From Limisphaerales bacterium (lineage in GTDB: Bacteria; Verrucomicrobiota; Verrucomicrobiia; Limisphaerales; AAA164-E04): a stretch of 64,000 nt of DNA. Location: NCBI GenBank assembly GCA_024761205.1, contig JAMASS010000005.1:161761-225760 (forward strand), in the 5' to 3' direction. A model generated the notes under the pieces. That model was not told the DNA's origin, did no database searches, and saw only the letters and a program-made list of their open reading frames with translations. This document shows positions 1-24,100 of the stretch, piece by piece (position 1 is the first letter of the stretch; every line of letters starts with the position of its first letter). A program made the position numbers and the translations under genes.

Positions 1-163
1 ATTTTGAACTGGCTGGACCAGCCACCTCCCGACGATCACACGCTTCGTGTTAAAACGCAGGACATTACCCCGTAGAAATTGGACTCGACGAAAAGGTTGA
101 TATCCGCACTCTCTTGGCGTGGAGAAATTTAAAGCCCTACCTCGAAACCAAACGGAAGGCTAA
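1..163 (+). pseudogene. C-terminal remnant of a multiubiquitin (tandem Ub-like beta-grasp) protein
   Basis: Two-frame reading gives ...LDQPPPDDHTLRVKTQDI / VEIGLDEKVDIRT / LGVEKFKALPRNQTEG*. The last segment (113-163) matches the usual multiubiquitin C-terminus with terminal Gly. The gene runs off the window's left edge and is frameshifted. Confidence 0.62.
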
Positions 164-184
164 GAATAAGGCCTCGCAAAGAAT

Positions 185-560
185 TCAATCCCCTCCCAAT
201 AGACGAGCAATTCCTAATGGAATTTGGTTGGAAGTGGGAAACAGTCATCGACAGTTCTAGTGGATCGTGATTCATGTTTTCGAAACACCAGAAGGATACG
301 ATCATTACCTCGTAACAGTAGCAATTCGTCTCGGATACCCCGAGAGTCAGTTGAATATGGTCTACTTCTTTTCTCACCTAACGAGGAAAGACGGTATCCC
401 AATTGGTGCGACCCAAGTACATCAGCAGATTGACGGAAAGGGATATCAACGATGGTCGCGACACCGAAGTATGGCAAACCCTTGGAATCCCAAAGGGGAC
501 AATTTGGAAAGCTATGTTATCCTGGTCGAAGACTGATTGGAGCGGGAGCTTGCCGAATGA
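185..560 (+). pseudogene. E2/UBC-like (prokaryotic E2 family E type) protein, frameshifted
   Basis: LPIDEQFLMEFGWKWETVID in one frame, then WIVIHVFETPEGYDHYLVTVAIRLGYPESQLNMVYFFSHLTRKDGIPIGATQVHQQIDGKGYQRWSRHRSMANPWNPKGDNLESYVILVED in another. The GYP..QLDMVYF and QRWSRH..NPW motifs are characteristic. Confidence 0.72.
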
Positions 561-1980
561 CCAAGCTATGCTTGCTGAGCCTAACTGCTGACCAACACGA
601 TGTCCTTCGTGCCTATCTCTATCCGGGCGATGGCAAGGAAGCCGCTGCGATAGCTCTCTGTGGAACAATGTTGAAGACCGTCGAGATCGGCTGTTAGTCC
701 ATAAACTTGTGACGGTTCCTTATATGTGAGCTCGGCAAGAACTAGTGCCCGACTCACCTAGTCTCCTGAGTCCATCGACTCCGTATTGAGTCAAGCCGAA
801 GTCAATGATTTTACTGTCGTGAAAATTCGCTGACATCCAAGCAGACAGAGATTCTTTTCCACAGTTGCTGCTGTAGACCAACATCTGTTGCCGATGATTC
901 AAGCGTCTATAGATTCCGATATGCCGATTGCCAGCTTGATCATGCCCCAAAATGGGGAAATGTTCGGGCGACATTTGGTCGGTGAGGAGACCTTCGATCT
1001 GCTAAATTCTATCAATATTGTCGGAGACGACTTGGTATATTGGCATGTGCCACTCGTGCCTCCATTCCCGAATTCACAACATCCCTTGGACAATTCTTTG
1101 GCTCTGAAACCTACGCTCAGTTGAGCCAGCTACCCGTCGCCGTTGTCGGCTACTCCGGAACCGGAAGTCCGACAATAGAGCAGCTTGTGTGTTTAGCGGT
1201 ATGCGAACTGGGCTTGATCGACGATGACAGCATGGAACAGCGAAATGTCAATCGGATACTTGACTCATCGATGGATGATATTTCTCAAAATCAATCGGCG
1301 CAAAGGCGACTTATGGACGATGCGACTCGTCGGATTGGACTAGAAACTCGGGTGATCCAGCTTCCAATAAATCTGTGGGATCCCGAGGTTGTTCGCTCGA
1401 TTTCCTAATGTAATGTAGTGTTCGGCTGTATGAACACTGTCGACGGCAGATTCCTACCCAACCGGCTGGCAACTTATCACACGCTGCCGTATTTCGACGT
1501 AGGGATAAGACTAGTTGCCGATCAGAAATTGAACTCGAAGGGACAAGTTAAGAAAGCATGTGAAACCATTCATTGCTTACAGCCAAGAAAATCAAACTTG
1601 GTGAATAGTGGTCTTTTCACGATGAAAGACACCACTGCAGTCGGAATGCGACGAGACGACCCTCAAGCGTTGAAGTCCAAGTTAAGGACGGATACCATCC
1701 ATGGTGCTGCTGAATAGAAGCCTGCTGTGATCAGCGTTAACATATTCGCTCCGTCGCTAGCGATGTATGAATTTCTAACAAGACTTCATCCCTATTGCGA
1801 GGAGAACAATAATAACTACGCTTCCTTGGGTTTCAACTTGGCAAGTATGGAACTATATAATACCAGAGCCGAAAGATGACTGGACAACCAAACCTTTACG
1901 AGCCATTGAAAGAGGGAGCGCCTCACTGTTGCTCGGATTTGTGGAACTGGCGGAGAAGAGTACTCAATGAAATCAATCAC
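557..1980 (+). pseudogene. JAB (JAMM isopeptidase)-ThiF/E1-like fusion protein, multiply frameshifted
   Basis: MTKLCLLSLTADQHDVLRAYLYPGDGKEAAAIALCG (JAB start); VVKIR*HPSRQRFFSTV...LLPMIQASIDSDMPIASLIMPQNGEMFGR (JAMM region with stop); LPVAVVGYSGTGSPTIEQL...NVNRIL (ThiF nucleotide-binding); VVFGCMNTVDGRFLPNRLATYHTLPYFDVGIRLVAD; KPAVISVNIFAPSLAMYEFLTRLHPY. Segments lie in order in different frames. Confidence 0.8.
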
Positions 1981-2365
1981 AACACAGCTCAAAGTATTGG
2001 GATTACGGCAATCTGTTCGCCACGATATCAAACGCTATTGGTCGACGATCCATTACCGTCTTATCTGAAACCGCGGGCGGCATACTTGGTTATAGCAGAA
2101 AGACTACTTAAACACGCAGCATTCACCTGTTCCTATGGGCACGGTCGTAATGTTCAACTAAACCTATTTCCCGATGAGCGCCCACGATGGAAAACCGTGT
2201 GTCCCCAGGACAGCACCGTTAGTCTGCATCCAGCGAGCAAAAGAAGGATTGTCGTTCCCATTTCTGGCTGCAACATGGACGGATCCAATGGTGCGATTAA
2301 GCCATCACCATCGGTTTAATTTTGGGTTGGACGTGATCAGTCGAACCAAGTTCAAGCTGTTTTAG
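1965..2365 (+). pseudogene. DUF6527-like protein, frameshifted
   Basis: TCSYGHGRNVQLNLFPDERPRWKTVCPQDSTVSLHPASK, then in another frame DCRSHFWLQHGRIQW. This resembles the CxCGCG...LnL...W...vtLhPS...CrSHFwI..G.I.W pattern and is located directly after the E1. Confidence 0.6.
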
Positions 2366-3726
2366 GAGCAAATAGTTCAACATTCCGCCGGGTTCACTAT
2401 AACAGTAGATCAATCCTTCTTCGGCCAACTCCCGGGCCCTGAACTACCAGTGAAGCTGAGGTAGGTGCAAGCAGTGAAGGAGCAGCAAGGGAGTATGCTG
2501 GATTACTCGTTAAACTGAGTCACTCTCATTCTGTCCTGAAATCGGGCGTTGCATTGTGCGATTCCTACCCTCTCCGCCAGTTTTGTTTCGAACAGGAATC
2601 AACGGAGCGAACCAAAGTGATTCCCACAATGCGAAAGCGGTTTCAGTCCATCGTTCAATCACCAAATCCACCAAAGAAAATTCTCAAGGCTTTCCGCTAG
2701 ACTCTCAATTGGAACACCTCCCCTTGCGGGAAGGGCCTGAATACTCTGCTAAACTCGCTCCGTTTACGGTAATAGACCCACAGCATCACAATAACTGAGT
2801 ATCGCCAGACACAATTTCACCAACACGCTCCTGTCGCGATCTTTCCTCTAAGCGATCCTTTTAGCTAGCCACTTGAGGCAATTGGATCGCCTGATTGCAA
2901 TCTGCCAATTTGGCGATCAAATTGAAGAAAAGTAGCTGAATAGTGAGACCGCCCCAATTTAGAAATCTTCAGCCTGAAATTATAGGACGCAGTTCAATTT
3001 TTGGAAAGCGGTGATTTGGAGAGAGGAGGGAAAAAGGGATCCCGGCGACTGTTGCGCCCACAGGTATCCAGCCAAGGAATGTCTTCGGTTCTCCCCCCGG
3101 GGATATCCAGGATTGCCCCGGGCTTTTGAAACGACATAGCAGCGGACAGGGCCGATGGGCAGCGCCTCGGCGGCTTTCGGTTGCACCCGACGCTCAAGGG
3201 TCTTGCTGCCGGAACACTTGCCCGCCCATTCTCCTGCCAGTCGGCCCCAAGGGATCCCTCTTCCCTAGGGGCTGTCGAACTCTGCTTCAGCGAGCGGGAT
3301 ACCTCTGGCTTGGCCCTTCTTGCAGAGGGACGGCCACCATCCGAGACCTTGACGGCCCTGCGATGCTCACGGAATCAATCGCATGAACCTTCCATGTATC
3401 GCATCGATTGCCCAGTTGCACGCGCCACGTCACCTTCCCTTTTTAAACCATGGCCGACAGAGATTCATGAGCTAGTTAATACTTGCTTCCCGCTGGCCAT
3501 CAAACGGTTTGATAAAGGAGCCCAAAAAAATTTCTCTACGAGCGGGGTTTCATCACCAAAAACCCGAACTCGGACTGATGGAGTGGATGCCGCTTTTGTG
3601 TCACAGCCAACGGAGAGTTGTTCTGAAAATGGTGGAATACCACTCCACCAATCCCCTCATCTAAAATCTGCCCTCGATTCTCTCAACCTTGACGGCCTAC
3701 GATACTAATAACGGACACTCCTCACC

Positions 3727-4480
3727 ATAATGGACGGAGCCCTGGTCACTGCTGCGATACGCACGGGAGCGGACTCCGCCGTCGCCAGTCGTATTTATGG
3801 CGCGACCCGATAGCAGAATCCTAGGCCTGATTGGCTGCGGCTCCCAAGCCGTCACCCAACTTCACGCCTTGAGCCACGTATTTGATATCGATCAGGTCCT
3901 CCTCCGCGGCATCGCTCCCTCAGTCATCAAGTCCTTTGAGCAGCGTGTCGTCGGATTGGATATCAAGTTGGGATTGGTCCAAACCGTTTTAATGGATGAA
4001 TTGGCATCACCACAGTCCGACATCATCAGCGTCATCGCCTCAGTCGGGGCGGTGAAGGTCCTATATCCACGAGCCTTGCAACAAAGCCGTGGATCCACAT
4101 CAACGCGGTCGGCTCTGATTTCCCCGGGAAGAAGGGAACCTCTGCAGAGCTAGTCAAATCCTTGTTCATTTGTCCCGACATTTCGGACCAAGCGATCAAG
4201 GAAGGTGAATGCCAACGCTCGACCGCGAACAAATCAGTCCCGCACTTTCGGAGCTTGTTCAGCGATCCGAAGAATTCGGGCATCAAAGCCGCCGAATGAT
4301 CTTTAATTCCACCGGATGGGCTCTTGAGGATCAGATCGCTATGGATATCATCCTCGATCACTCGGCAGCGATGGGGAGCAGGGAATACCCTCAAATCAAA
4401 AACTTCTCCCCCGACCCTCACTCCCTTTCTTTCGCGCGACAGCCGACGCCATAGCTTCTGACCGCAAGGAATTTCTACCT
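3727..4480 (+). pseudogene. Ornithine cyclodeaminase / mu-crystallin family, frameshifted
   Basis: MDGALVTAAIRTGADSAVASRIYGATR / ARPDSRILGLIGCGSQAVTQLHALSHVFDIDQVLLRG... / WIHINAVGSDFPGKKGTSAELVK... / STGWALEDQIAMDIILDHSAAMG in successive frames. Confidence 0.75.
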
Positions 4481-4619: not shown

Positions 4620-6059
4620 GGAGAGCCTTCGGTGGGGAGTGTCAGCTGCCCCTGCTTGGACCCACGTGCGGCGGGCGCCTCCGGCAATGTGAAGCGGCGT
4701 CCTGCCAAAATGTCCGGCACACTCAGCAGTTGCAGTCGGGGGCAGCGTTTGTCCTTCATCTCTCCGGCCATTGCCATCTCACGGCTGAAGGCGGCTTTCT
4801 GCTGCGGCTTCAAATTGCGCATCAGGATCAGGCCGGCCATATCGGCCTCTTCACGTTCCAAGACACCTCGCAGCTAGCGCACCACGCTGATATTGACATT
4901 CTCGCCGCCCTTCACCTCCAACACCATCGAGCGCAGTTTCTTCCTTGACCGCCCGAAGTAGATGCGTCCGTCAATGCCCCGCTTCGTCGTGACGAAGCCG
5001 TCCACCTCCTCTACCACCCATTTCTGGAAGTGATACGGGTCACGCTTCCATAAATCAATGGCCCCTTCGAGCGTGCTTGGCACGCCATCAATAACGAAGT
5101 CAACCCCTTCCTTCAATCCGAGCCGATCATGCAGACGAGCCGTAGCCACGCGCTTGATGGCGTGGATGGCGATGTCGCTTCCGATCCGGTGGCGTTTCAA
5201 GCTATGCGCGGCCTCCAAGGTAGTGGCGCACCCACAGAACGGGTCGAACACCACATCACCTTCATTCGATCTCGCCTTGATGATCCTCTCCAGCAACGGC
5301 AAGGGCTTCTGCGTAGGATAGCCGAGGCGTTCTTTAGATATATTGATAATGGCTTTTATATCATCCCATATATTTTAAACATCTGCAAAATAGCGCCCTT
5401 GTTCATCAACCTGTTCGCTGAAGAATGGCTTATGGTAAAAGATTCGTTCTTGAATAGGGTGATGCTTATACAAACCGGATTTTATATAAAACAGTGGTAT
5501 ATCGTGCTTGCGCGGCCAATGCCGTTTGCTCGCTCCGCCGGTGCGATACGCCCACACGATTTCATTCCTGAAATTCCTGTGCCCGAACACGCCGTGCAAC
5601 ATCACCTTGATATAATGGCTGGCAGTCGGGTCGCAATGCAGGTAAATGCCCGGTGGGTTTGAGGATGCCGCGCATAGGCAGGAGCCGCTCCGTCATATAA
5701 GAGAGATAAGCCAACAACCTCGGGTCCGTCCGGCGCAGGGACTTCATCCAAAGCCGCCAAAACTCTGCGGTGTCATTATCAATGCCGGATTTCCGCATGA
5801 GCACCGGCAACTGATGTATGGCGCGAATCCGCTCACCGTCCAACGTCCATTGATCGCAAAAGGCCTCGACCTGTTCCGGCAAGGGACGCCCGGTCTCGTC
5901 TTTATAGATAGCGTTGTAGTCCCTATTCGAGTTGAAGGGCGGGTCGAGGTAAATCAGGTCCGTGCTGCCCGGACCCAATTTATCCTGCATAACAGTCAGG
6001 CAATCGTCGTAATAAAGCTGATTGATCCGGCTCACGCGAGGGACCTCCGCATCAAGCAA
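4620..6059 (-). pseudogene. Site-specific DNA methyltransferase (type III Mod-like / N4-N6 MTase), frameshifted
   Basis: INQLYYDDCLTVMQDKLGPGSTDLIYLDPPFNSNRDYNAIYKDETGRPLPEQVEAFCDQW (DPPF motif); MMLHGVFGHRNFRNEIVWAYRTGGASKRHWPRKHD; DVVFDPFCGCATTLEAAHSLKR (SAM-binding FxGxG region); C-terminal PRLQLLSVPDILAGRRFTLPE. The pieces are in three or more ORFs. Confidence 0.85.
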
Positions 6060-6572
6060 GCAAAGGCGATCCCCTTGTTGTATCTCCAGATCGCCTCAGC
6101 GATAAAAAGCAGCATCCGACGGCTACTCTAGTGGTGGTGCGACCCAAGCCCGTTTTATCAAGGGCTTAGCCTTCAATCGTGTTGACGAGCCCTTCCGCAT
6201 AAGCGAGGGCGTGATTGATGACGGCGGGCCGAAAACCGGAGCGGGGCGATAGGCGCGGTTATTCATCGGTAATCGGAAGGGTGCCCTGCTTTTCAACAGC
6301 CCCTGGCAGGAAACGGAGAATGCCCTTGCCGGACAAGGACTCGGCAACGCAAGCGACAACCCTTCCGCCCCGTTCTACAGCGCCAATGACCGGAGTTGGA
6401 ATATGGCAACAGATTCACAAGCGCGCCCCTCATCCGCGCGCCCGAGGTGAAGCATCGCCCGCTACCGATCGGGCCCATAATTTATCATTCCGAAATCAAT
6501 AGATTGTTCGGGCAAAGCGATGATTCCAACCGTGATTGATGTTTTCCGATGTCACTTGGTTACCTGAAGTGC

Positions 6573-6910
6573 TCATTTCGCTTTCGGTTTCGCTGGTTTA
6601 GTATTATCGCTTTGTTTGCTTGGTGCCGCCCGACGTTTGGCGAACATCTCGGCCTTTGGATTGTAGTCCAGGACGAGTTGTATCCAGTAAGTCAGACCTG
6701 AGCAAATGTCTGTCCCGGAAGCGAAGGCAAATTCGAACATCGGCCGTTTGGTGAAGTCCATTGCGCCGCACCCCTTGTGCTTTTGAGCGCATCCTCATAG
6801 AGGTTTGGGACCGATGCGAGCTATGAGTCGATCTTTGTCAACGCCAACGCACATTTTGCTGTCCGCCATGTAGCAGAGGCCGCCTATCATCTTTTTGGCA
6901 TCGAAGGGAC
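6573..6910 (-). pseudogene. TfoX/Sxy N-terminal-domain protein, frameshifted
   Basis: Reverse strand reads KKMIGGLCYMADSKMCVGVDKDRLIARIGP, then MDFTKRPMFEFAFASGTDICSGLTYWIQLVLDYNPKA, the TfoX-N pattern (K-MFGGLcfm..gkMcvGv...LmvRvgp...MdFTGRPM). Confidence 0.72.
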
Positions 6911-7264
6911 TCCTTTTGCTTAAACACGGTGGCCACGCAATCCGCTAGCTGGTCGTTTATATGCCATGGATGGGTATTCGTTTGATTTGTGGCTCGTTGG
7001 GGGTGGGCTCATCTGCCGGAAACTTGGCGACTACCGGAGATCAAACAAGCCTTCATCAACGATCCAGGAGCGTTTGTGGAGGAGTGGCGTCGACGGGTCA
7101 ACGAAAGAACGACTGAGTATCTGAGGGCAGTCAAAGCTGGGTGATGGCGAGTTCTTCTAAGCGATAGGCATGAATTGACTTGTGGCTTGGACAAGGCACT
7201 ATTTGTTAGCGTTTCCAAACGACTGCCTTTTTAGGCGCTAAATGCCGGATCGATTTCTAGTTAG

Positions 7265-10200
7265 GTGGCAAGAGTGATGAGTCGAATGGCACAGTGGTCA
7301 AAAGTTCAAGTTTTGTGGCTTTTTTGTCTCCGACAATGGTTTGCGGTAGCACTTTTGCCTCCTCTGTTGGCCGTGGGTCAGGAGGAAGCCTTTCAGGAAG
7401 ATCTCTTTGTCGACGAAGTGCTGCCGGTCTTTGCTGATCGGTGTTTTCAATGTCACGGTGAGAAATCACAGAAGGGCGGTTTGCGGTTGGATTCTCGGGC
7501 TGCGGCTGTCCAAGGTGGTGATTCAGGGTCGATTTGGCTGGGTGGGAACAGCGCTAACAGTGAAATCGTCAAGCGGATCATGGCATCGGGCCTGGATGAG
7601 CGCATGCCTCCGAGGGGGGAGGCATTGACGGCGATGCAGATCAACGCGATCAAATTGTGGATCGACCAAGGGGCAGTGTGGCCGGACCGATTCGCGCAGA
7701 ACGTGGAGCAGGTGGTTCCCCAGTTTTGGTCACTAAGTCCACTGGTCTATCCATCCGTCCCGGAGGTTCATCCCGAGTGGCGTTCGTGGGCAAAAAATCC
7801 AGTTGATGCTTTTGTTCTTGATCGACTCCGAGCCAACCAACTTGAGCCATCACCCCAGGCGGATCGTCGAACGTTGATTCGGCGTTTGTACTACGGTTTG
7901 TTGGGGCTCCCGCCGAGTCCGGAACAAATCGAACGATTTGTCGCTGATCCCAATCCGTTGGCTTATGAACGGCTCGTCGCTGAACTTCTGGCATCGCCGC
8001 ATTACGGCGAGCGCTGGGCGCGACATTGGTTGGATCTGGTCCATTTCGGGGAGACTCATGGTTATGACAAAGACAAGCTGCGTCCGAATGCCTGGCCTTA
8101 CCGTGACTATGTCATTCGAGCGCTAAATGATGACCGGCCATACTCACGTTTTGTGCGGGAACAACTGGCCGGGGATGCGTTGTATCCCGAGGCTTTGGAC
8201 GGTCTGGCCGCAACCGGTTTCATCTCCGCGGGTCCTTGGGACTGGATCGGACATGCCGAGGTTTCTGAGGACAAGATCGATGGCAAGGTGGCTCGGAATT
8301 TGGATCGCGCTGACATGGTCATGACGACCATGAGCACATTCACCAGTATGACCGTGCAATGTGCTCGGTGCCACGATCATAAGTTTGATCCGGTCAATAT
8401 GAGGCAGTATTACGGCTTACAGGCCGTTTTTGCTGCGCTGGATCGATCGGACGCTGAGTTTGATGTGGATCCGCGGGTGCGTCGATCGCGGTCTGAATTG
8501 AGCAAGCAGATCAAGTTGTTGGAGGCGCAGCAAAAGGAACAACAATCTCGATTGAGGGAATTGGGGGGCGACCGCTTGGCGGAGATTGAGAAAGAGATCA
8601 AGCAATTGGAAAAGCCGAGCGAGGCCCATCCTGCATTTGGTTACCATAGCGAGATTGAGGAAAGGGACGACGTTGAGAAATGGGTTCAAGTCGATCTTGG
8701 TTCAGTGGTGGTTGCAGAACGTATCGAGTACATCCCGGCGTATGACGACTACAACGGGATTGGCGCGGGATTCGGATTTCCCGTTCGGTACCGAATCGAG
8801 GTTTCCGATCGCGATGTCTTCAAAGATTCAGCTGTCATCGTGGCCGACTATACCGGCAAGGATGTTACGAATCCAAAACACAACCGGCAGTGTATACTCC
8901 TCAACGGAAAGCCGATTCGATTTGTTCGGATTACAGCTACGAAATTGGCTCCCAGAAACGACGACTACATCTTTGCGCTCGCTGAGGTGATTGTACTGGA
9001 TCAAAACGGTGAGAATGTTGCCCGGTCGAAGAAAGTGACCGCCTTGGACTCCATTGAGAGTGGCGAGCGGTGGGGGAGGGATAATCTGGTAGACGGGATC
9101 TTTCCCGGTGTGAAACGAAGCAGCGAAGAGCAAGCGGCGCAATTGGCTGCGGCCCGCGAAAATCGTGAGGTGTTGCTGAGAGAAGTCGTGCCTAAGGAAC
9201 TGCGAGGCCAAATGGTTGAAACCGAGGGCGCGCTGGCAACAGCACGACAAGCGCTCACAGCCCTGCCGGCCCCAATGAAGCTCTATGTCGGGCGGGTGCA
9301 CACGGGGCGCGGTGCGTTTCGGGGGACCGGTGCCAATGGCGGGAAGCCGCGTGAAATCCGGGTATTGCATCGTGGGGATGTGACCAATCCCGGGGAGTTG
9401 GTTCGGCCTGGAGCAATTGATCTATTTGAAGGTGGGGAGCGGTTTTTTGAACTGCCTCCAGAACACCATGAGAGTGAACGAAGGATTGCGTTGGCGGAAT
9501 GGATTCTGGATCGTGAGAACCCCTTAACCTGGAGGTCGATCGTCAATCGTCTGTGGCAGCATCATTTTGGCCGGGGGATCGTGGATTCTCCCAACGATTT
9601 CGGTCGAATGGGGCAGCGCCCCACCCATCCGGATCTGCTGGATTGGTTGGCCGTGCAATTTAGGGATCACGGTCAGTCGATCAAGGCGATGCATCGGTTG
9701 ATCGTGTGCAGTGCAGCGTACCAGCAAAGTTCTGCGGCCCGCTCCGAGGCGGTGGCTATCGATGGTGGTAATCGTTATTTCTGGCGGATGAATCGCCGTC
9801 GATTGGATGCCGAGTCCATTCGGGATAGCGTTTTGTTGCTGGCGAATCACATGAATTCGGAAATGTTCGGTCCTTCGTTTCAAGATTTTGTGATCGAGAA
9901 ACCCGAGCACTCGCCGCACTACCAATATCACTTGCACGATCCGATGGATGTCCGGTCCCACCGCCGGTCGGTTTATCGCTTTCTCGTGCGGTCTCAGCAA
10001 CAGCCGTTCATGACGACGCTTGATTGCGCCGACCCGTCGATGATGGTGGGCAAACGTGCGGAAACGCTGACGCCGCTGCAGGCGTTATCGCTCCTGAATA
10101 ATCGTTTTATGACCACAATGGCGGAGCAAATGGCAGCTTCGGTCTGCAGCGAGGGCGGCGGGTTGGGTGAGGATCTCGAACGTTTGTTTTATCGAGTGAC

Positions 10201-10318
10201 GGCGAGAATCCCTGCTGTGGATGAGCTGAAGCTGCTGGTCGAGTATGCGGAGCAACACGGAGCGGCGAATGCATGCCGGGTGATGCTGAACCTCAATGAG
10301 TTTGTGTTCGTCGATTGA
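7265..10318 (+). CDS. PSD1-type planctomycete cytochrome c / DUF1549-DUF1553 protein with discoidin-like insert
   Basis: Intact 1017 aa ORF. CFQCHGEKSQKGGLRLDSRAAAVQGGDSG (CxxCH), DAFVLDRLRANQLEPSPQADRRTLIRRLYYGLLGLPPSP, NPLTWRSIVNRLWQHHFGRGIVDSPNDFGRMGQRPTHPDLLDWLA, internal F5/8-type segment. Confidence 0.93.
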   Translation: MARVMSRMAQWSKVQVLWLFCLRQWFAVALLPPLLAVGQEEAFQEDLFVDEVLPVFADRCFQCHGEKSQKGGLRLDSRAAAVQGGDSGSIWLGGNSANSEIVKRIMASGLDERMPPRGEALTAMQINAIKLWIDQGAVWPDRFAQNVEQVVPQFWSLSPLVYPSVPEVHPEWRSWAKNPVDAFVLDRLRANQLEPSPQADRRTLIRRLYYGLLGLPPSPEQIERFVADPNPLAYERLVAELLASPHYGERWARHWLDLVHFGETHGYDKDKLRPNAWPYRDYVIRALNDDRPYSRFVREQLAGDALYPEALDGLAATGFISAGPWDWIGHAEVSEDKIDGKVARNLDRADMVMTTMSTFTSMTVQCARCHDHKFDPVNMRQYYGLQAVFAALDRSDAEFDVDPRVRRSRSELSKQIKLLEAQQKEQQSRLRELGGDRLAEIEKEIKQLEKPSEAHPAFGYHSEIEERDDVEKWVQVDLGSVVVAERIEYIPAYDDYNGIGAGFGFPVRYRIEVSDRDVFKDSAVIVADYTGKDVTNPKHNRQCILLNGKPIRFVRITATKLAPRNDDYIFALAEVIVLDQNGENVARSKKVTALDSIESGERWGRDNLVDGIFPGVKRSSEEQAAQLAAARENREVLLREVVPKELRGQMVETEGALATARQALTALPAPMKLYVGRVHTGRGAFRGTGANGGKPREIRVLHRGDVTNPGELVRPGAIDLFEGGERFFELPPEHHESERRIALAEWILDRENPLTWRSIVNRLWQHHFGRGIVDSPNDFGRMGQRPTHPDLLDWLAVQFRDHGQSIKAMHRLIVCSAAYQQSSAARSEAVAIDGGNRYFWRMNRRRLDAESIRDSVLLLANHMNSEMFGPSFQDFVIEKPEHSPHYQYHLHDPMDVRSHRRSVYRFLVRSQQQPFMTTLDCADPSMMVGKRAETLTPLQALSLLNNRFMTTMAEQMAASVCSEGGGLGEDLERLFYRVTARIPAVDELKLLVEYAEQHGAANACRVMLNLNEFVFVD

Positions 10319-10325
10319 TCAGAGC

Positions 10326-11825
10326 ATGAAAAGGGCAACGAAAGAACGTCCGGTTTTCTTGAGCCGACGCAAGTTCCTGTGGAAGTCGGGGGGAGGCTTT
10401 GGTGGGCTGGCATTGAGTTACTTGCTTGGTCGAGATCAAGCGCTGGCCAGTAGTCCGCTCGCGACCGGTGCCGGAGGGTTAGGATACCTGCGGTTCAAAC
10501 CAAAGGCCAAGCGCGTGGTGCAGCTCTTCATGGCGGGCGCGGCTAGTCATGTGGACACCTTCGATTACAAGCCCGAGCTGTTCAAACGCAACGGAGAAAA
10601 GTGGGACCCTGGTGAAAGGGTTGAGCTGTTCCAAAGCAGTCCGGGAAAGACCTTTGCGCCGCCCTGGGCCTTTCAACCCTACGGGCAGTGTGGGAAGCAT
10701 TTGAGCGAGATTGTGGCCCCGCTTGGGGAGTGCGTTGATCAGATGGCCTTTATCCACAATTTGGCGGGAAAGACGGGTGTCCACAGCCAGGCCACTTATC
10801 TTCAATCAACTGGATTTCAATTGCCTGGTTTTCCGGGGATGGGGGCTTGGGTGAGCTATGCCTTGGGGAGTCTGAATGACGATTTGCCCACCTTTGTCGT
10901 TCTGCCAGACCATCGAGGATTTGCTTCCAATGGCCCGAAGAATTGGAGTGCGGCTTTCTTGCCGGCCGAGCATCAAGGGACCACCATTTTTCCCGGCCGG
11001 GAAAATCCGATCGCTGATTTGTATCCGACCGATGGCGACTACATTACCGATGAGAGCGACGCTGCTGGATTTACCCTGCTCAAGCGCCTCAACGAGAAGC
11101 ATCATGCTTCCAACCGAATTGATGACGGACGATTAGGTGCGCGGATTCGATCGTATGAGCTGGCGGCGAAGATGCAGCTGAGCGCGCCGGAAGCGTTGGA
11201 TATTTCTCAGGAGCCGGAGTGTATCATAAGGATGTATGGCTTGGATCATGGGAAGCAGACCTTTGATCCTCAAATCAATCCGATCGAGGAGACCGACTAT
11301 TTTTCCCGCAAATGTTTGGTTGCTCGGCGGCTCCTCGAACGGGGAGTTCGGTTTGTGCAAGTTTGGTCGGGCAACGACAATGGATTTCCACGACGCAACT
11401 GGGATTCACATGAGGACATCAAACGCGACCATGGGCCGCTGGCCTTGGGAATGGCGACTGGGGCGTCGGCCTTGATTCAGGATTTGGCGCAGAGAGGTAT
11501 GTTAGAAGACACGCTTGTGCTTTGGGCCACTGAGTTTGGTCGAATGCCCTGCGCGCAGGGAAGCAAGGGTCGCGATCACAATCCGTTCTGTTTCAGTAAT
11601 TGGCTGTGTGGCGGCGGCATCAAGGGTGGGGTAACCGTGGGGGAAAGTGATTTTTGGGGCTTTCAACCGGCCGACCGCAACAATCCAACGCAGGTGTACG
11701 ATATCCACGCAACGATACTTTACCTCATGGGAATTGATCACGAGAGATTGACCTATCGGCATAATGGGATCGATCGGCGACTGACCGATGTGCACGGTCA
11801 TGTGATTCGGGATTTGATCGCCTAG
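10326..11825 (+). CDS. DUF1501 domain-containing protein (Tat-type N-terminus)
   Basis: SRRKFLWKSGGGFGG leader; MAGAASHVDTFDYKPEL; RDHNPFCFSNWLCGGGIKGG; DIHATILYLMGIDHERLTYRHNGIDRRLTDVHG. Directly downstream of the PSD1 gene, the standard pair. Confidence 0.92.
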   Translation: MKRATKERPVFLSRRKFLWKSGGGFGGLALSYLLGRDQALASSPLATGAGGLGYLRFKPKAKRVVQLFMAGAASHVDTFDYKPELFKRNGEKWDPGERVELFQSSPGKTFAPPWAFQPYGQCGKHLSEIVAPLGECVDQMAFIHNLAGKTGVHSQATYLQSTGFQLPGFPGMGAWVSYALGSLNDDLPTFVVLPDHRGFASNGPKNWSAAFLPAEHQGTTIFPGRENPIADLYPTDGDYITDESDAAGFTLLKRLNEKHHASNRIDDGRLGARIRSYELAAKMQLSAPEALDISQEPECIIRMYGLDHGKQTFDPQINPIEETDYFSRKCLVARRLLERGVRFVQVWSGNDNGFPRRNWDSHEDIKRDHGPLALGMATGASALIQDLAQRGMLEDTLVLWATEFGRMPCAQGSKGRDHNPFCFSNWLCGGGIKGGVTVGESDFWGFQPADRNNPTQVYDIHATILYLMGIDHERLTYRHNGIDRRLTDVHGHVIRDLIA

Positions 11826-11884
11826 CTTTAAGGAGGGTTAGAATGCACATGAGGGCCCCGGTTTGGTCGCGATTAGTTATCTGA

Positions 11885-13480
11885 GTGCTTCTGTTGGCCT
11901 TTGGTTTCAGCACCGCGCTGGTCGCTCAGTTTCCGCAGACCCGCCTGTGGACGGTGTTTCCTGCGGGAGCGCAGATCGGCACTACGGTTGAAGTGTCCAT
12001 ATCCGGATCCGATCTCGATGGGCCGACTTTGCTTTCGTTTTCAGACGAGCAGATTCAAGCAAGGTCAAAACTCGATAGCGATGGCAATCCGGTTGAAAAG
12101 CAATACTGTCATCAAGGTGTCATCTTCGATGGAGAAGGGACTCTTCGAGGTGTGGGGACAGGTAAGGACGGAACCTCAAACTCACGACTCTTCGCTCTCG
12201 ACAGGCGGGATGAGATTGTCGATTCGTCACCGGCTTACAAGGCGGAGGATGCGGTGCCCGTGCGTGCGACTAGGATCAGTCGTCAATGGGCGCGCGGTAG
12301 CGAATCAGAAGAACTACTATCGCTTCTTTGCTTGTCAGGGACAGCGGGTCGTCGTCTCTTGCTACGGCGAGGTTATCGACTCGAAGCTGGATCCTGTAAT
12401 TCAGCTATTGGATGCGGATGGCCGGATGCTGCAGAAAGATCGGCAAGGTTGGACGCTTGATTATACTGCCTTGACCACAGGCCCTCTCTTCGTGATTGTC
12501 AGCGATCTGACCTACCGAGGCGGTGAGCCGTTTTTCTATCGTCTCTCAATGCGCACCGATCTCCGCATGCCGACTATGTACTCCCGCTTGAGCGCGCCTG
12601 CCGGTGGTGAGCAAGAATTTCATATCTTCGGACGCAATCTTCTCCGGGCTACCAAAAGCCGGGTTGCCTCGGATTTTGGCGCGTTGCTGGATCATGCGGT
12701 GTCGACCAGCAAGGTGCCTGAATTTGGAAAGGCGCCGGTTTCGCTGATGGGCGTGCGCCATTCACTCCCCGGCTTCGCACTGCGAATGAGCTTTCTCTAT
12801 TCAGTCTTGCACAGACAAGGTAGCTGGTTTCAACGCCGAATCGGCCTTTGCGCATTTAACTCTATTGTCGAGATGGAAGCGATCTCCGGGGAGGCCGGCA
12901 TTCAGAAGGTTGATGTGCCGGTGGTGATCTCGGGAATGTTCTACCCGAGACTCGATCAAGATGCCTATGAGTTCGATGCTAAGAAGGGCGAGCGCTATTG
13001 GATCGATGTTCATTCTTACCGACTGGGCTATGGAACGAGTCCGTTGGTCGTGGTGGAACAGATCAAGGAGGACGGCAACGCAAATTCAGTCATGGAGTAT
13101 CTGACGATTTCTACGTATAGTTCACCGATTCGAATGGAGGCGTTCCCAGCGCCTTTTGAAATCGAAGCAACTGATGAGCCGGTGGAATTGCTGTTGAATG
13201 AGCGGGTTGAGATTCCAGTCAAACTCCAACGACGATTTGGTTTCGATGGCCAACTTGAAGTGAGGCCGACTTTCACGGATCAAGTGAAGGGCCTCAAGGC
13301 GACCATCTCCATGCTCCGGAATGATCAGATCACTCTCACCTTGGGATCGACGGGTGATGGCTCGTTGGCCAGGCAAGTGTCGAACTGAGGGCAAAGGGCA
13401 AACTCAATGGAAAGCCGGTCGTGTCTGCAAAGGTCGTTCAAATCAATCTGATCGCTGCCACCAATGCTGGGATTGATTGA
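11885..13480 (+). pseudogene. PPC-domain (pre-peptidase C-terminal-like) secreted protein, frameshifted
   Basis: FSTALVAQFPQTRLWTVFPAGAQIGTTVEVSISGSDLDGP in one frame; NYYRFFACQGQRVVVSCYGEVIDSKLDPVIQLLDADGRMLQKDRQGWTLDYTAL in another; tail VELRAKGKLNGKPVVSAKVVQINLIAATNAGID* in a third. Confidence 0.7.
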
Positions 13481-19789: not shown

Positions 19790-20556
19790 ATACATTAAAA
19801 CTCGGTCTGGAGCGAGCCAACCACACCATCAGTCCTCAGATCGCCTGCAGTAATGACTACAAATCTCTAGATCTGTCCATCTCGGAAGCGATCACGCTCA
19901 ACGACAAAAACACGATCACGACCCTGGCTTGGCCCATAGCTTTGATCGCGGTCCTGCCGAATCCCGGCACCTTTATCAATGCCCCGAAGAATAAAGACAC
20001 CACTGACATCTTTCTGGGTATGAATCAAGTCCTTGGAAAACGAACGCACCTGACCGCCAATCTCACTCTCGACGGCGGCAAGGGCTACTTGGCCGATCCC
20101 TACAAAGGAGTCGTGTTCAAGGATTTCCCCTTCTTCCCTCCCTTTCCCTATACAGTCTTCGGCGAGGGACGGCCAAGACACAAACTTTGCCAAGTGGCTC
20201 ACCTTGGCCTCACCAACTATTGTCTCCAGATCGAGGCAGCGATCGAAGCGAGCCATCCTTGAACGATTCCTCCGGGATCACCACTCGCGCTGTCGATTTC
20301 AGCTTGCTAAAAAACTTTGGTGAAAGAATCACGCTGCATCCCCGGATCCGATATCATCATCAAACAACAGCCGATTTCTATGGACTCATCTTTCCTGGAG
20401 ATCCCAGCCTCTCCGACGAAGAGATACCCCCCCTACTCAGCCGACTATCGGCCCTCGCACTTAGAGACACTCACCTTCGGAATCAACGCCACGGTCGAGC
20501 TCTCGGAATCGCTCCGACTCGACCTCGGTTACAAGCCCTACCTCATGACGGACTAG
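19790..20556 (+). pseudogene. DUF3570 outer-membrane-like protein, frameshifted
   Basis: NDYKSLDLSISEAITLNDKNTITTLAW; VLPNPGTFINAPKNKDTTDIFLGMNQVLGKRTHLTANLTLDGGKGYLADPYKGVVF; NDSSGITTRAVDFSLLKNFGERITLHPRIRYHHQTTADFYGLIFPGDP, in different frames. Confidence 0.72.
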
Positions 20557-20589
20557 ATGGGCGAACCATCGCCAGTCCTGATCCCGCTG

Positions 20590-21433
20590 CCAATATACTT
20601 ACCGCCATGGCGGCTCACTGCCACGTGATATGCCTATGGCAGCATCGAGCAAGCTCTTCTTCGCTACACTCGGGCAGTCATCGACTAGGCTGCGAATTTT
20701 GAAGCCAAATATTCCCGATTTCTCGACACGAGTATCATCAACCGCAACCGCTAATGCCGGGGCCAATAGACCTCAATCAATTCTGAAACGGAGACTATCC
20801 TTCGGTTATGTGATGAACTTTACTTTCTGTCGAATGGAGCCCGTGACCACTCCAGTCTGCCCTTCACTCGCCCCCTGGTCGGCTGGAATAAGGCGGCAGA
20901 CGAGCCGTCCCAATTCTCCTTCCTCGATCTGGCATGGGCTCGACCTTGAGAGGCATGAGCAAGGAGTACGCCGTTGATCAGACGGGGCAATTGGAAAAGG
21001 CACACGGCATCCAGTGCTTGCTAGTCGACTACGGACAAGACATCAGCACATTAAATCCACCGAAGGGTGTCCCCCCTGACACATCGCGTTAGAGGGCCCA
21101 AAGCAGCTGGGATATTGCTGGACCGGACTCGCCATTGCGGGACTGTCGGTTGACAGTTCCGGCAATCACCGACGGCACTTCGAGGAGAACAACAAAAGAT
21201 ATGGTCATATTCTCGACCCAAGAACGGGTTGCCCGGTCGAAAACGATATTCTGGTCGCCACCGTGATTTCGCCCAACTGCGTTCTCTCAGATACGCTCTC
21301 AACGGCCGCCATCATCCTCGGTCCCGAAGCGGGCTTGGCCCTGATCGAAAAGACTTGCCAAGCGGAAGGATGCCTGCCCTCCACCAATGGAACCTACGAA
21401 ACGAAAGGATTCTCTAAATATATTGTGCGCTAA
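20590..21433 (+). pseudogene. apbE: ApbE-family FAD:protein FMN transferase, frameshifted
   Basis: SKEYAVDQTGQLEKAHGIQCLLVDYGQDIS; FEENNKRYGHILDPRTGCPVENDILVATVISPNCVLSDTLSTAAIILGPEAGLALIEK...KGFSKYIVR*. The order is correct and there are several frame changes. Confidence 0.75.
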
Positions 21434-22099
21434 TAAATAAGGGAATTATATCCTTACCAAATATAAAGCGATTGCTTAATATACTTTCATGTCAGACGGC
21501 AATTTCACGCCAATAAAGGTTGCCCAGCAGCAGGGAGGTTGGCGAAGCATGGAGATTGCCCCTCATAGCCCCCAAACTCCGCCGCCGCTGTACCTTCCGC
21601 CGAGTGCCGATCGGCGCCGCCGGCAGGAGTGCGCAAAGGCCGGCGGCCGCCTCATGGCGACCATCTCTATGGGTGAGAAGTCCGGGCTAGCAGCATTGCT
21701 TGGAATGGCGCTGCCAATGCAGGCACTCGCGTCTTGAATGATAAGGGGAAACGTCTCGTGGCATCAAGAATTGCGGCGAAGTAATGCTCAGTTCTGATTC
21801 GCTCCGAGAGACCGTCTTGGCGAACGAGGGCCATTTCTGAGCTCGCTCTGCCAGCACCGCATCTAAGCTCGTCTGATTGCGGGATTCAGTAAGCTGCAGA
21901 TGAAAATTTTCGGTGATCGTTGCGCTGGGTTCGAGAATGGATTGAACGGTCGTCTCCACATTGGTGCGGGCACCGATGCTGGAGAGATGGGGAGCAAAGG
22001 CGCTTCTCCGCCCTTGAATACTGTTGGCACATGACACGCTCTGCCGCTCCCGTGCTATTAAAGAAGAGTTCTCGGCCACGGGCGGCATTTGCGCGATCG

Positions 22100-24100
22100 A
22101 GGGCCGCGATAAACCCAGCGAGATTGGCCGGTTTTCAGGATTGAGGACGACTTCAATGCCGAGCTTGTCGCTGGCGAACATTGATCCTTGACAGAGTCAA
22201 GGATCGGGTTTTAGAGCGATTCCTGTGATGAGCGCAGTCATGATGTTGCTGCCACTGAGCTGTTCGGCGCTAACCTTGGAAATCGCTGTCAGCACGCGGA
22301 CTTGATACGAACGTCGTCGATGGCCTGAAGTTGATCGGCCAGCATGTGATCCTAACCGGCGGGTGGATTCCAATCACCGATGAATCGGAGGCGAACCAGG
22401 CTTTCGAGAGCACCGGTGATCGAAGCGGAACGCGGTTCAGTCTTGAGTTTTTCGAGGAGGTAGTTCGCGATGTCGGTGGCGGATTAGCGCGCGCCATCCG
22501 GCAATTGTAGATATCCGGCGATGGCTGCTTGAGTAAGGATGTTGCTGCCGCTGAGTCCCGTCCAGAGAACGGGTTTTGCCTTGGCTTCACGGGAGAGATT
22601 ACGAGTGGCTTGAGCGCGTTTCTGATCTTCATTGAATGTTTGGTAAAACGCAAAGGCTTCATCTCATTCGTCACTGTCTTCGTATGTGGCTAGCTCGCGA
22701 GAGCATGGTGAGAAATATCTGTCGCCTCTGCAGAGAGGTGGCCTCTGCGTACATCGGATGATTTCGCCAACCGATATTGATTGTACTTGTTCGATTTGCG
22801 ACTGTTCATTGGGCGTTTTTTTCGGCGGTACCGGATTCAGGACCCAAGTAGTGATCCACTGTTAAATCTGAGGATTGGTGTCTTGCCCGGCGATCTTCAG
22901 TGCCTCGTCAAGCGTGAGATTATAGCGTTCTAGAAGTCCCAGGAGGGGTGCAGGTCGGATCGTTGGGTGGGCATTTTATTAAGGAGTTGCGTTTGTGCCG
23001 TGACGCTCTGCAGATCACAAAGAGCACCCCAGGCGACGCAGTAGGCCAGGCGATCGGTTCGTGCGAAAGCCAGCCGAGAATGGCTGGCATGGAATGGGAC
23101 TCGCGCGCGTGTTAGATGGCTTAAATCACTTCAAAACGAAGACACGGGTTTTTGGATCTTGAACCAAATTCACAATCGCTAGGGGCGGGGCGTTACTTCG
23201 TTTTCCGTCGCGCAGCTAATGCGCGAAGATGCGGACAGCTTGTATTTTTAGGTTGAAGGGCGCGCGTGGTTCGGTCGCCTGCAGGAGCAGCCAATTTGAG
23301 AATCGGCCGCTCCCATTTGGCTCAAGAGCCCGCACGACTCAAGTTTTTTGGCTTTGATTCAGGCTGCCGCTCTCGATCTCGGCGGTCAGAGCACTTCGGT
23401 TCGCTAGACCTCGGCGCACCACTCGTCTTGCACGTTGACCCTCCACACCGGGATGACACGGTGATCGAGATCTTCAATAGGCCGGTCGAAAGTCCACTCC
23501 GGATAGGGATGTGATCATTTGGCGTGGTATCAATCGGATCAGGCCGCTACGGGATTGCCGGTATAATGGATTCGATAGAGCCAGTTCCCTTCTCGCCCGG
23601 TTGATAGTGATAGTCACCGTCCCAGCCGCAGACATAGATCGTACCGTTTAGACCAAACTCTATGTCCGGGGCCGATAGAGAAATTTCCCACGTTTGGAAA
23701 AAGGCTCCCATTGCCCGTCTTCAGGGATACATAAGCGCACCGTCCCAGTCGGGACGGTAAACGTACGTGCCATATAGCCAATCATTGATAAAAAGATCCC
23801 CCGATAGTTCTCGGAAAACTGATATGTATGTAGTAGATGATCACGGTGCCGGAAACATGAAACACGGAATCGCTGATTCGAGCAGTGGGTGAAAATGATC
23901 GTGACCAGTCCAGTGATTGCTAGAGGAATGCCCCCAGCCGAAGTGAGTACCAAATACGGGCTCGAGGATACGATCTCCTTCATTCTGGTCGCTGTTCGTC
24001 TCCAGCCAATTGAATGTGTTGTCCATGGTGATATTCCAAGGGGCGCGTAAACCGCGTGAGATGGTTTCGAAATTGCTGCCTATGGGATCGCAACAAAGCA
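22100..24100 (-). pseudogene. PVC-type membrane-bound (sorbosone-like) dehydrogenase remnant, probably with decayed C-terminal HEAT-like part
   Basis: Reverse strand: DPIGSNFETISRGLRAPWNITMDNTFNWLETNSDQNEGDRILEPVFGTHFGWG, then LFINDWLYGTYVYRPDWDGALMYPEDGQWEPFFQTW..SAPDIEFGLNGTIYVCGWDGDYHYQPGEKGTGSIYRIHYTG. The rest is broken into short frames. Confidence 0.55.

What the first reader, a model, noticed from the sequence alone, without database searches (positions are those of the whole stretch)
1..2365. Relic of a bacterial ubiquitin-like conjugation operon (multiUb - E2 - JAB/E1 - DUF6527)
Seen: four consecutive segments on + strand, in the canonical order. They are a multiubiquitin tail ending GVEKFKALPRNQTEG*, an E2-family-E-like block (QRWSRH..NPW), a JAB-ThiF fusion, and a DUF6527-like block (CRSHFW..GRIQW). 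None can be read in one frame. Established: operons combining tandem Ub-like proteins, E2, E1/ThiF-JAB and DUF6527-like proteins occur in bacteria and are linked to Ub-like conjugation, often in defence or accessory settings. Inference: this is a dead copy, possibly one member of a decayed defence/accessory island with the DNA methyltransferase relic at 4.6-6.1 kb.
Basis: partly seen in the sequence, partly recalled or inferred. Interest (0 to 1): 0.85.

Follow-up and report, generated by a model that had tools for sequence, protein, structure and literature searches.

The report
Dead bacterial ubiquitin-like (Bub) operon
This is the wreck of a known four-gene bacterial protein-tagging system (a "Bub" ubiquitin-like operon) that still exists intact in other bacteria but is broken in every gene here, so it is an ordinary, well-preserved gene fossil rather than something new.

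Summary
Window 1-2300, plus about 177 bases to its left on the same contig, holds a collinear bubA-bubB-bubCD-bubE operon (Ub-like; E2 family E; JAB-ThiF fusion; DUF6527). Pfam, frame-aware alignment and profiles built from intact relatives identify all four genes, far above shuffled DNA. It matches 19 intact operons from Verrucomicrobiota, Bacteroidota, Acidobacteriota, Planctomycetota, a Hydrogenophaga and a viral contig, and through them the solved Citrobacter Bub structures.

Every gene is broken: about nine frameshifts, at least five internal stops of all three types, a bubB start position reading ATA, and 13 of 54 residues invariant in intact BubCDs changed, including a histidine and an aspartate of the JAB motif. 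Decay continues through cyclodeaminase-like, DNA-methyltransferase and TfoX-like relics and stops at an intact gene at 7265. No second copy was found in the genome or in its held congeners.

Corrections: bubA is whole on the contig, with a single Ub fold, not tandem ones. The "defence island" idea is only weakly supported. This is a dead member of a known kind. Side observation: intact relatives often carry a divergent ECF-sigma / small / CapP-peptidase cassette, not found here.

The parts
1..160 (+). bubA relic (Ub-like protein), 3' part; the gene begins about 177 bases left of the window (C45:161584). One Ub-fold domain ending ...GVEKFKALPRNQTEG
   Evidence: Multi_ubiq 18.8 bits; frame-aware alignment to L051/L012 BubA over -177..160, about 38% identity, one stop near -117 and three frameshifts
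166..560 (+). bubB relic (Prok-E2_E, E2-like). Start position reads ATA, 2 bases after the bubA stop, the same spacing as in an intact relative; one frameshift at about 259, internal TGA at 534
   Evidence: PF14462 E 4.9e-31; 42% identity to L012 BubB; frameshift and stop each supported by 11 of 12 relatives
563..1060 (+). bubC part (JAB/JAMM isopeptidase-like) of the bubCD fusion relic; in-frame stops at 759 and 831, frameshifts at about 670, 725 and 1050; JAMM motif destroyed
   Evidence: tblastn segments 572-667 and 783-1037 against relatives; alignment; invariant His-to-Arg and Asp-to-Val at motif positions
1061..1950 (+). bubD part (ThiF/E1 adenylation) of the bubCD fusion relic; stops TAA 1406 and TAG 1715, frameshift near 1850
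   Evidence: PF00899 E 2.5e-15; family profile 269.7 bits over 1061-1873; both stops supported by 18 of 18 relatives
1930..2300 (+). bubE relic (DUF6527); frameshift at about 2248; CPCGC cluster changed to CSYGH; N-terminal part degenerate
   Evidence: PF20137 6.8e-6 and 1.4e-5 in two frames; alignment to L012/L014 BubE; invariant test

Best explanation
A pseudogenised Bub (bacterial ubiquitination-like) operon. When alive it would have made a single-domain Ub-like protein (BubA), activated by the ThiF/E1 half of BubCD, handed to the E2-like BubB for conjugation, and released by the JAB half of BubCD; BubE is a DUF6527 protein whose role was not determined. That working model is inferred from the family and not tested here. 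In this genome every gene carries frameshifts or stops and loss of conserved residues, so the operon makes no functional product and has no present mechanism. It was possibly acquired horizontally (its nearest intact BubCD is from an Acidobacteria bin, and no held congener has it) and then lost selection.
For: All four families in canonical order and spacing; far above shuffles. Intact collinear operons in relatives, which match Citrobacter BubCD at 2.4e-75, BubB at 1.9e-24 and, weakly, BubA at 0.0027 among solved structures. Decay: at least five internal stops (TGA, TAG, TAA) and about nine frameshifts; 13 of 54 invariant BubCD residues changed, where intact members other than the very divergent viral L053 lose at most 5; relic terminal branch 2.45 against a median of 0.44. 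Neighbours are also decayed, and coverage by ORFs of 200 codons or more is zero in 1-4000 but 0.98 in 8001-12000.
Against: No reads were available, so a local assembly fault cannot be excluded outright. The tree position beside L038 has modest support (89/73), and the relic's reading was fitted to L038. The horizontal origin is therefore a suggestion only.
Confidence: 0.94

Rival explanations
1. The operon is intact in the organism and the breaks are sequencing or assembly errors.
For: The source is a draft assembly of 92 contigs; no read data were available.
Against: Breaks include substitutions at otherwise invariant sites, three stop types and a lost start, not only indels. The decay also covers the neighbouring genes, while long ORFs resume at 7265 on the same contig.
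Confidence: 0.03
2. Part of the relic (for instance the E2-like segment, open over 267-536) is still expressed as a short protein with a residual role.
For: The E2 segment has a 99-codon open stretch and keeps the family's QRWSRH motif.
Against: It lacks its N-terminal strand (frameshift at about 259) and its normal start, its partners are dead, and changes reach invariant positions.
Confidence: 0.02
3. The relic is one component of a decayed defence island together with the DNA methyltransferase relic.
For: A DNA methylase relic (PF01555, 6.5e-24) lies about 2.5 kb downstream. In the literature, capK+capS genes lie just downstream of a predicted R-M system in 88 of 443 cases, many of them next to Bub operons (PMC13373217).
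Against: A cyclodeaminase-like relic lies between, a TfoX-like relic follows, no restriction nuclease above cut-off is seen, and 10 kb to the left show no defence family. None of the Bub regulators tested for is present.
Confidence: 0.2

Closest known systems
Bub (bacterial ubiquitination-like) operons, e.g. Citrobacter BubA/BubB/BubCD (PDB 9EA4, 9EA5, 9EA8, 9EAE, 9EAV; Ye et al. 2026 and Gong et al. 2025, cited in PMC13373217, not themselves read)
   Same: Ub-like, E2 family E and JAB-ThiF fusion in the same order; intact relatives align to the solved Citrobacter chains
   Different: Here all genes are broken; BubA has one Ub fold, whereas the Citrobacter construct BubA 155-229 comes from a longer protein; none of the tested divergent regulators was found
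Bil (bacterial ISG15-like) systems
   Same: Ub-like, E1, E2 and a JAB-type protease (from general knowledge)
   Different: Gene families and fusions differ: here E2 family E, JAB fused to ThiF, and DUF6527; the Bil Ub-like protein (8U38) is only a weak hit

Membership tests
Bub operon | Ub-like protein of the Multi_ubiq family with a C-terminal Gly | tested here: met
   Below the Pfam cut-off but supported by collinear alignment and shuffles; relic ends ...QTEG
Bub operon | E2-like protein, Prok-E2_E | tested here: met
   4.9e-31
Bub operon | JAB-ThiF fusion (BubCD) | tested here: met
   ThiF by Pfam; JAB part by alignment to intact fusions
Bub operon | DUF6527 gene directly downstream | tested here: met
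   PF20137 in two frames; present after bubCD in all intact operons whose contig continues
Bub operon | Functional reading frames and catalytic residues | tested here: not met
   Stops and frameshifts across the operon; JAMM His/Asp and BubE Cys lost
Bub operon | Adjacent DNA-damage regulator (CapW, CapH+CapP or CapK+CapS; frequent, not universal) | tested here: inconclusive
   Sigma, small-protein and CapP-like profiles find nothing in the surrounding 134 kb; CapW and CapKS were only covered by Pfam scans of about 10 kb to the left and 5 kb to the right
Bub operon | Protein conjugation activity | not testable with these tools
   Needs biochemistry; moot for a relic

The most novel reading that the evidence does not exclude
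Bub operons turn over like mobile accessory or defence genes: a horizontally acquired copy, of an Acidobacteria-like lineage and without the tested regulators, was gained by a single species and has already died. It would be a loss event, datable with sister strains, for a system whose function is still unproven.
Probability: 0.3. Interest if true: 0.35.

Novelty: new member of a known kind. Interest (0 to 1): 0.22.

Why it matters
It shows a Bub operon dying in a genome that otherwise keeps mostly intact genes, the pattern of gain and loss expected of accessory or defence genes; Bub operons have not been shown to protect against phage (PMC13373217). It also warns that annotation pipelines may list fragments of such operons as real short genes.

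Tried and rejected
A relative search in genome contigs with the relic E2 alone found nothing; a profile of intact BubCDs worked. Recoding or an alternative code was rejected because all three stop types and frameshifts of different sizes occur. The sigma/small/CapP regulator cassette of relatives was sought in 134 kb around the relic and not found; four of the ORFs in that sigma profile were included by position only, and the later check showed one (L051) to be an HTH protein rather than a sigma factor. Synteny in congeners: the two flanking genes lie far apart in G395, so no empty site could be defined. DNA search of 58 related genomes found no orthologous relic. The Bub mechanism paper itself is not held.

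Full report
What was claimed.

Observation. The window is C45:161761-225760 of a 4.94 Mb, 92-contig assembly. Pfam finds Prok-E2_E (4.9e-31), ThiF (2.5e-15), DUF6527 (6.8e-6 and 1.4e-5, two frames) and, weakly, Multi_ubiq (18.8 bits against a cut-off of 24.5). Intact relatives in the same class (L011-L014) align collinearly by tblastn: BubA -111..160, BubB 175-542, BubCD 572-1852, BubE 2047-2294. Profiles from relatives score 17, 100, 300 and 36 bits on this stretch, against at most 8.4 bits in 200 dinucleotide shuffles.

Anatomy. Frame-aware alignment places bubA at -177..160. It is a complete gene with one Ub fold, beginning left of the window; its N-terminal linker (EEYARFGKRPP) matches that of relatives. 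The bubB start position reads ATA two bases after the bubA stop, the spacing seen in L011. bubCD runs about 563-1950 and bubE about 1930-2300.

State. bubA has a stop near -117 and three frameshifts. bubB has a frameshift at about 259 and a TGA at 534, each supported by 11 of 12 relatives. bubCD has a TAG at 759 (12 of 18 relatives), TGA 831, TAA 1406 and TAG 1715 (18 of 18 each) and about four frameshifts whose exact places vary with the template. bubE has a frameshift at about 2248. Of 54 residues invariant in 18 intact BubCDs the relic keeps 41. An intact member left out of the set loses at most 5, except the very divergent viral L053, which loses 14 of 68. The changes include the JAB-motif histidine and aspartate; in BubE the CPCGC cluster reads CSYGH. 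In the BubCD tree the relic's terminal branch is 2.45 against a median of 0.44. These are the marks of a gene no longer under selection.

Surroundings. To the right lie decayed relics of an ornithine cyclodeaminase/mu-crystallin protein (about 3550-4400), a DNA methylase (about 4870-6060, minus strand) and a TfoX-like protein (about 6780-6920, minus strand); long ORFs resume at 7265. To the left about 5 kb show no Pfam family at all, then an intact SIS-CBS gene follows. Most sampled parts of the genome have 55-90% of their length in ORFs of 200 codons or more, but several tracts are much poorer. Decay here is thus one of several patches in a mostly intact genome. Assembly error is unlikely but not excluded without reads.

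Relatives. A BubCD profile found 16 loci in GTDB genomes, from Verrucomicrobiota, Bacteroidota, Acidobacteriota, Planctomycetota and a Hydrogenophaga, and one viral contig. Where the contig allows, the order A-B-CD-E is kept; in six, A and B appear as one ORF. In L040 no separate B ORF was assigned. The family matches solved Citrobacter Bub chains, so it is Bub. PMC13373217 reports 544 Bub operons and states that protection against phage has not been demonstrated.

Origin. The own genome has no second E2_E copy. Three congeners and seven further members of the same family have none, and no orthologous relic DNA was found in 58 related genomes. The relic BubCD groups with an Acidobacteria sequence (89/73), away from the Verrucomicrobiota clade. 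This suggests, without proving, a horizontal gain followed by loss.

How it worked. Inferred from family knowledge: BubD adenylates BubA, BubB takes part in conjugation, BubC removes BubA.

Side observation. In relatives a divergent cassette often precedes the operon: an ECF-like sigma factor, a small protein and an M78 peptidase that matches PADLOC capP (4.8e-42 in L011, 4.1e-40 in L041); the small protein matches capH only weakly (8e-4 in L011). L045 has a clearer CapH/CapP-like pair instead, and L051 an HTH protein beside a CapP-like peptidase. [quoted passage not shown] The cassette has no trace near the relic.

Verdict. A genuine, well-preserved fossil of a known kind of operon: low novelty, modest interest.

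Noticed in passing
L011:7178-9143, L012:3514-5475, L013:3567-5528, L014:7580-9444; similar in L041-L043, L047, L048, L052: Intact Bub operons are often preceded by a divergent cassette of an ECF-like sigma factor, a small (weakly CapH-like) protein and a CapP-like M78 peptidase, possibly a sigma-factor version of the CapH+CapP DNA-damage switch.
   Followed up: partly
L014:6292-7455; also L038, L044, L046, L050, L053: BubA and BubB are one continuous ORF in several operons, so the Ub C-terminus would have to be freed by cleavage before conjugation.
   Followed up: no
window 3550-4400 +: Frame-broken ornithine cyclodeaminase / mu-crystallin relic (PF02423 in two frames).
   Followed up: partly
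window 4870-6060 -: Broken DNA methylase relic (PF01555, 6.5e-24) with a weak NA-iREase1-like tail.
   Followed up: partly
window about 6780-6920 -: TfoX N-terminal-like relic, below the Pfam cut-off.
   Followed up: no
C45:131800-169000 (L001, L002), window 20001-24000, contigs C60 and C65 (L031, L032): Long tracts with few long ORFs in a genome that is otherwise mostly coding; suggests many pseudogene patches.
   Followed up: partly
G395:C1:2299826-2300842 (L075): The SIS-CBS sugar isomerase homologue of a congener shows one in-frame TAG; pseudogene, error or extension not settled.
   Followed up: no
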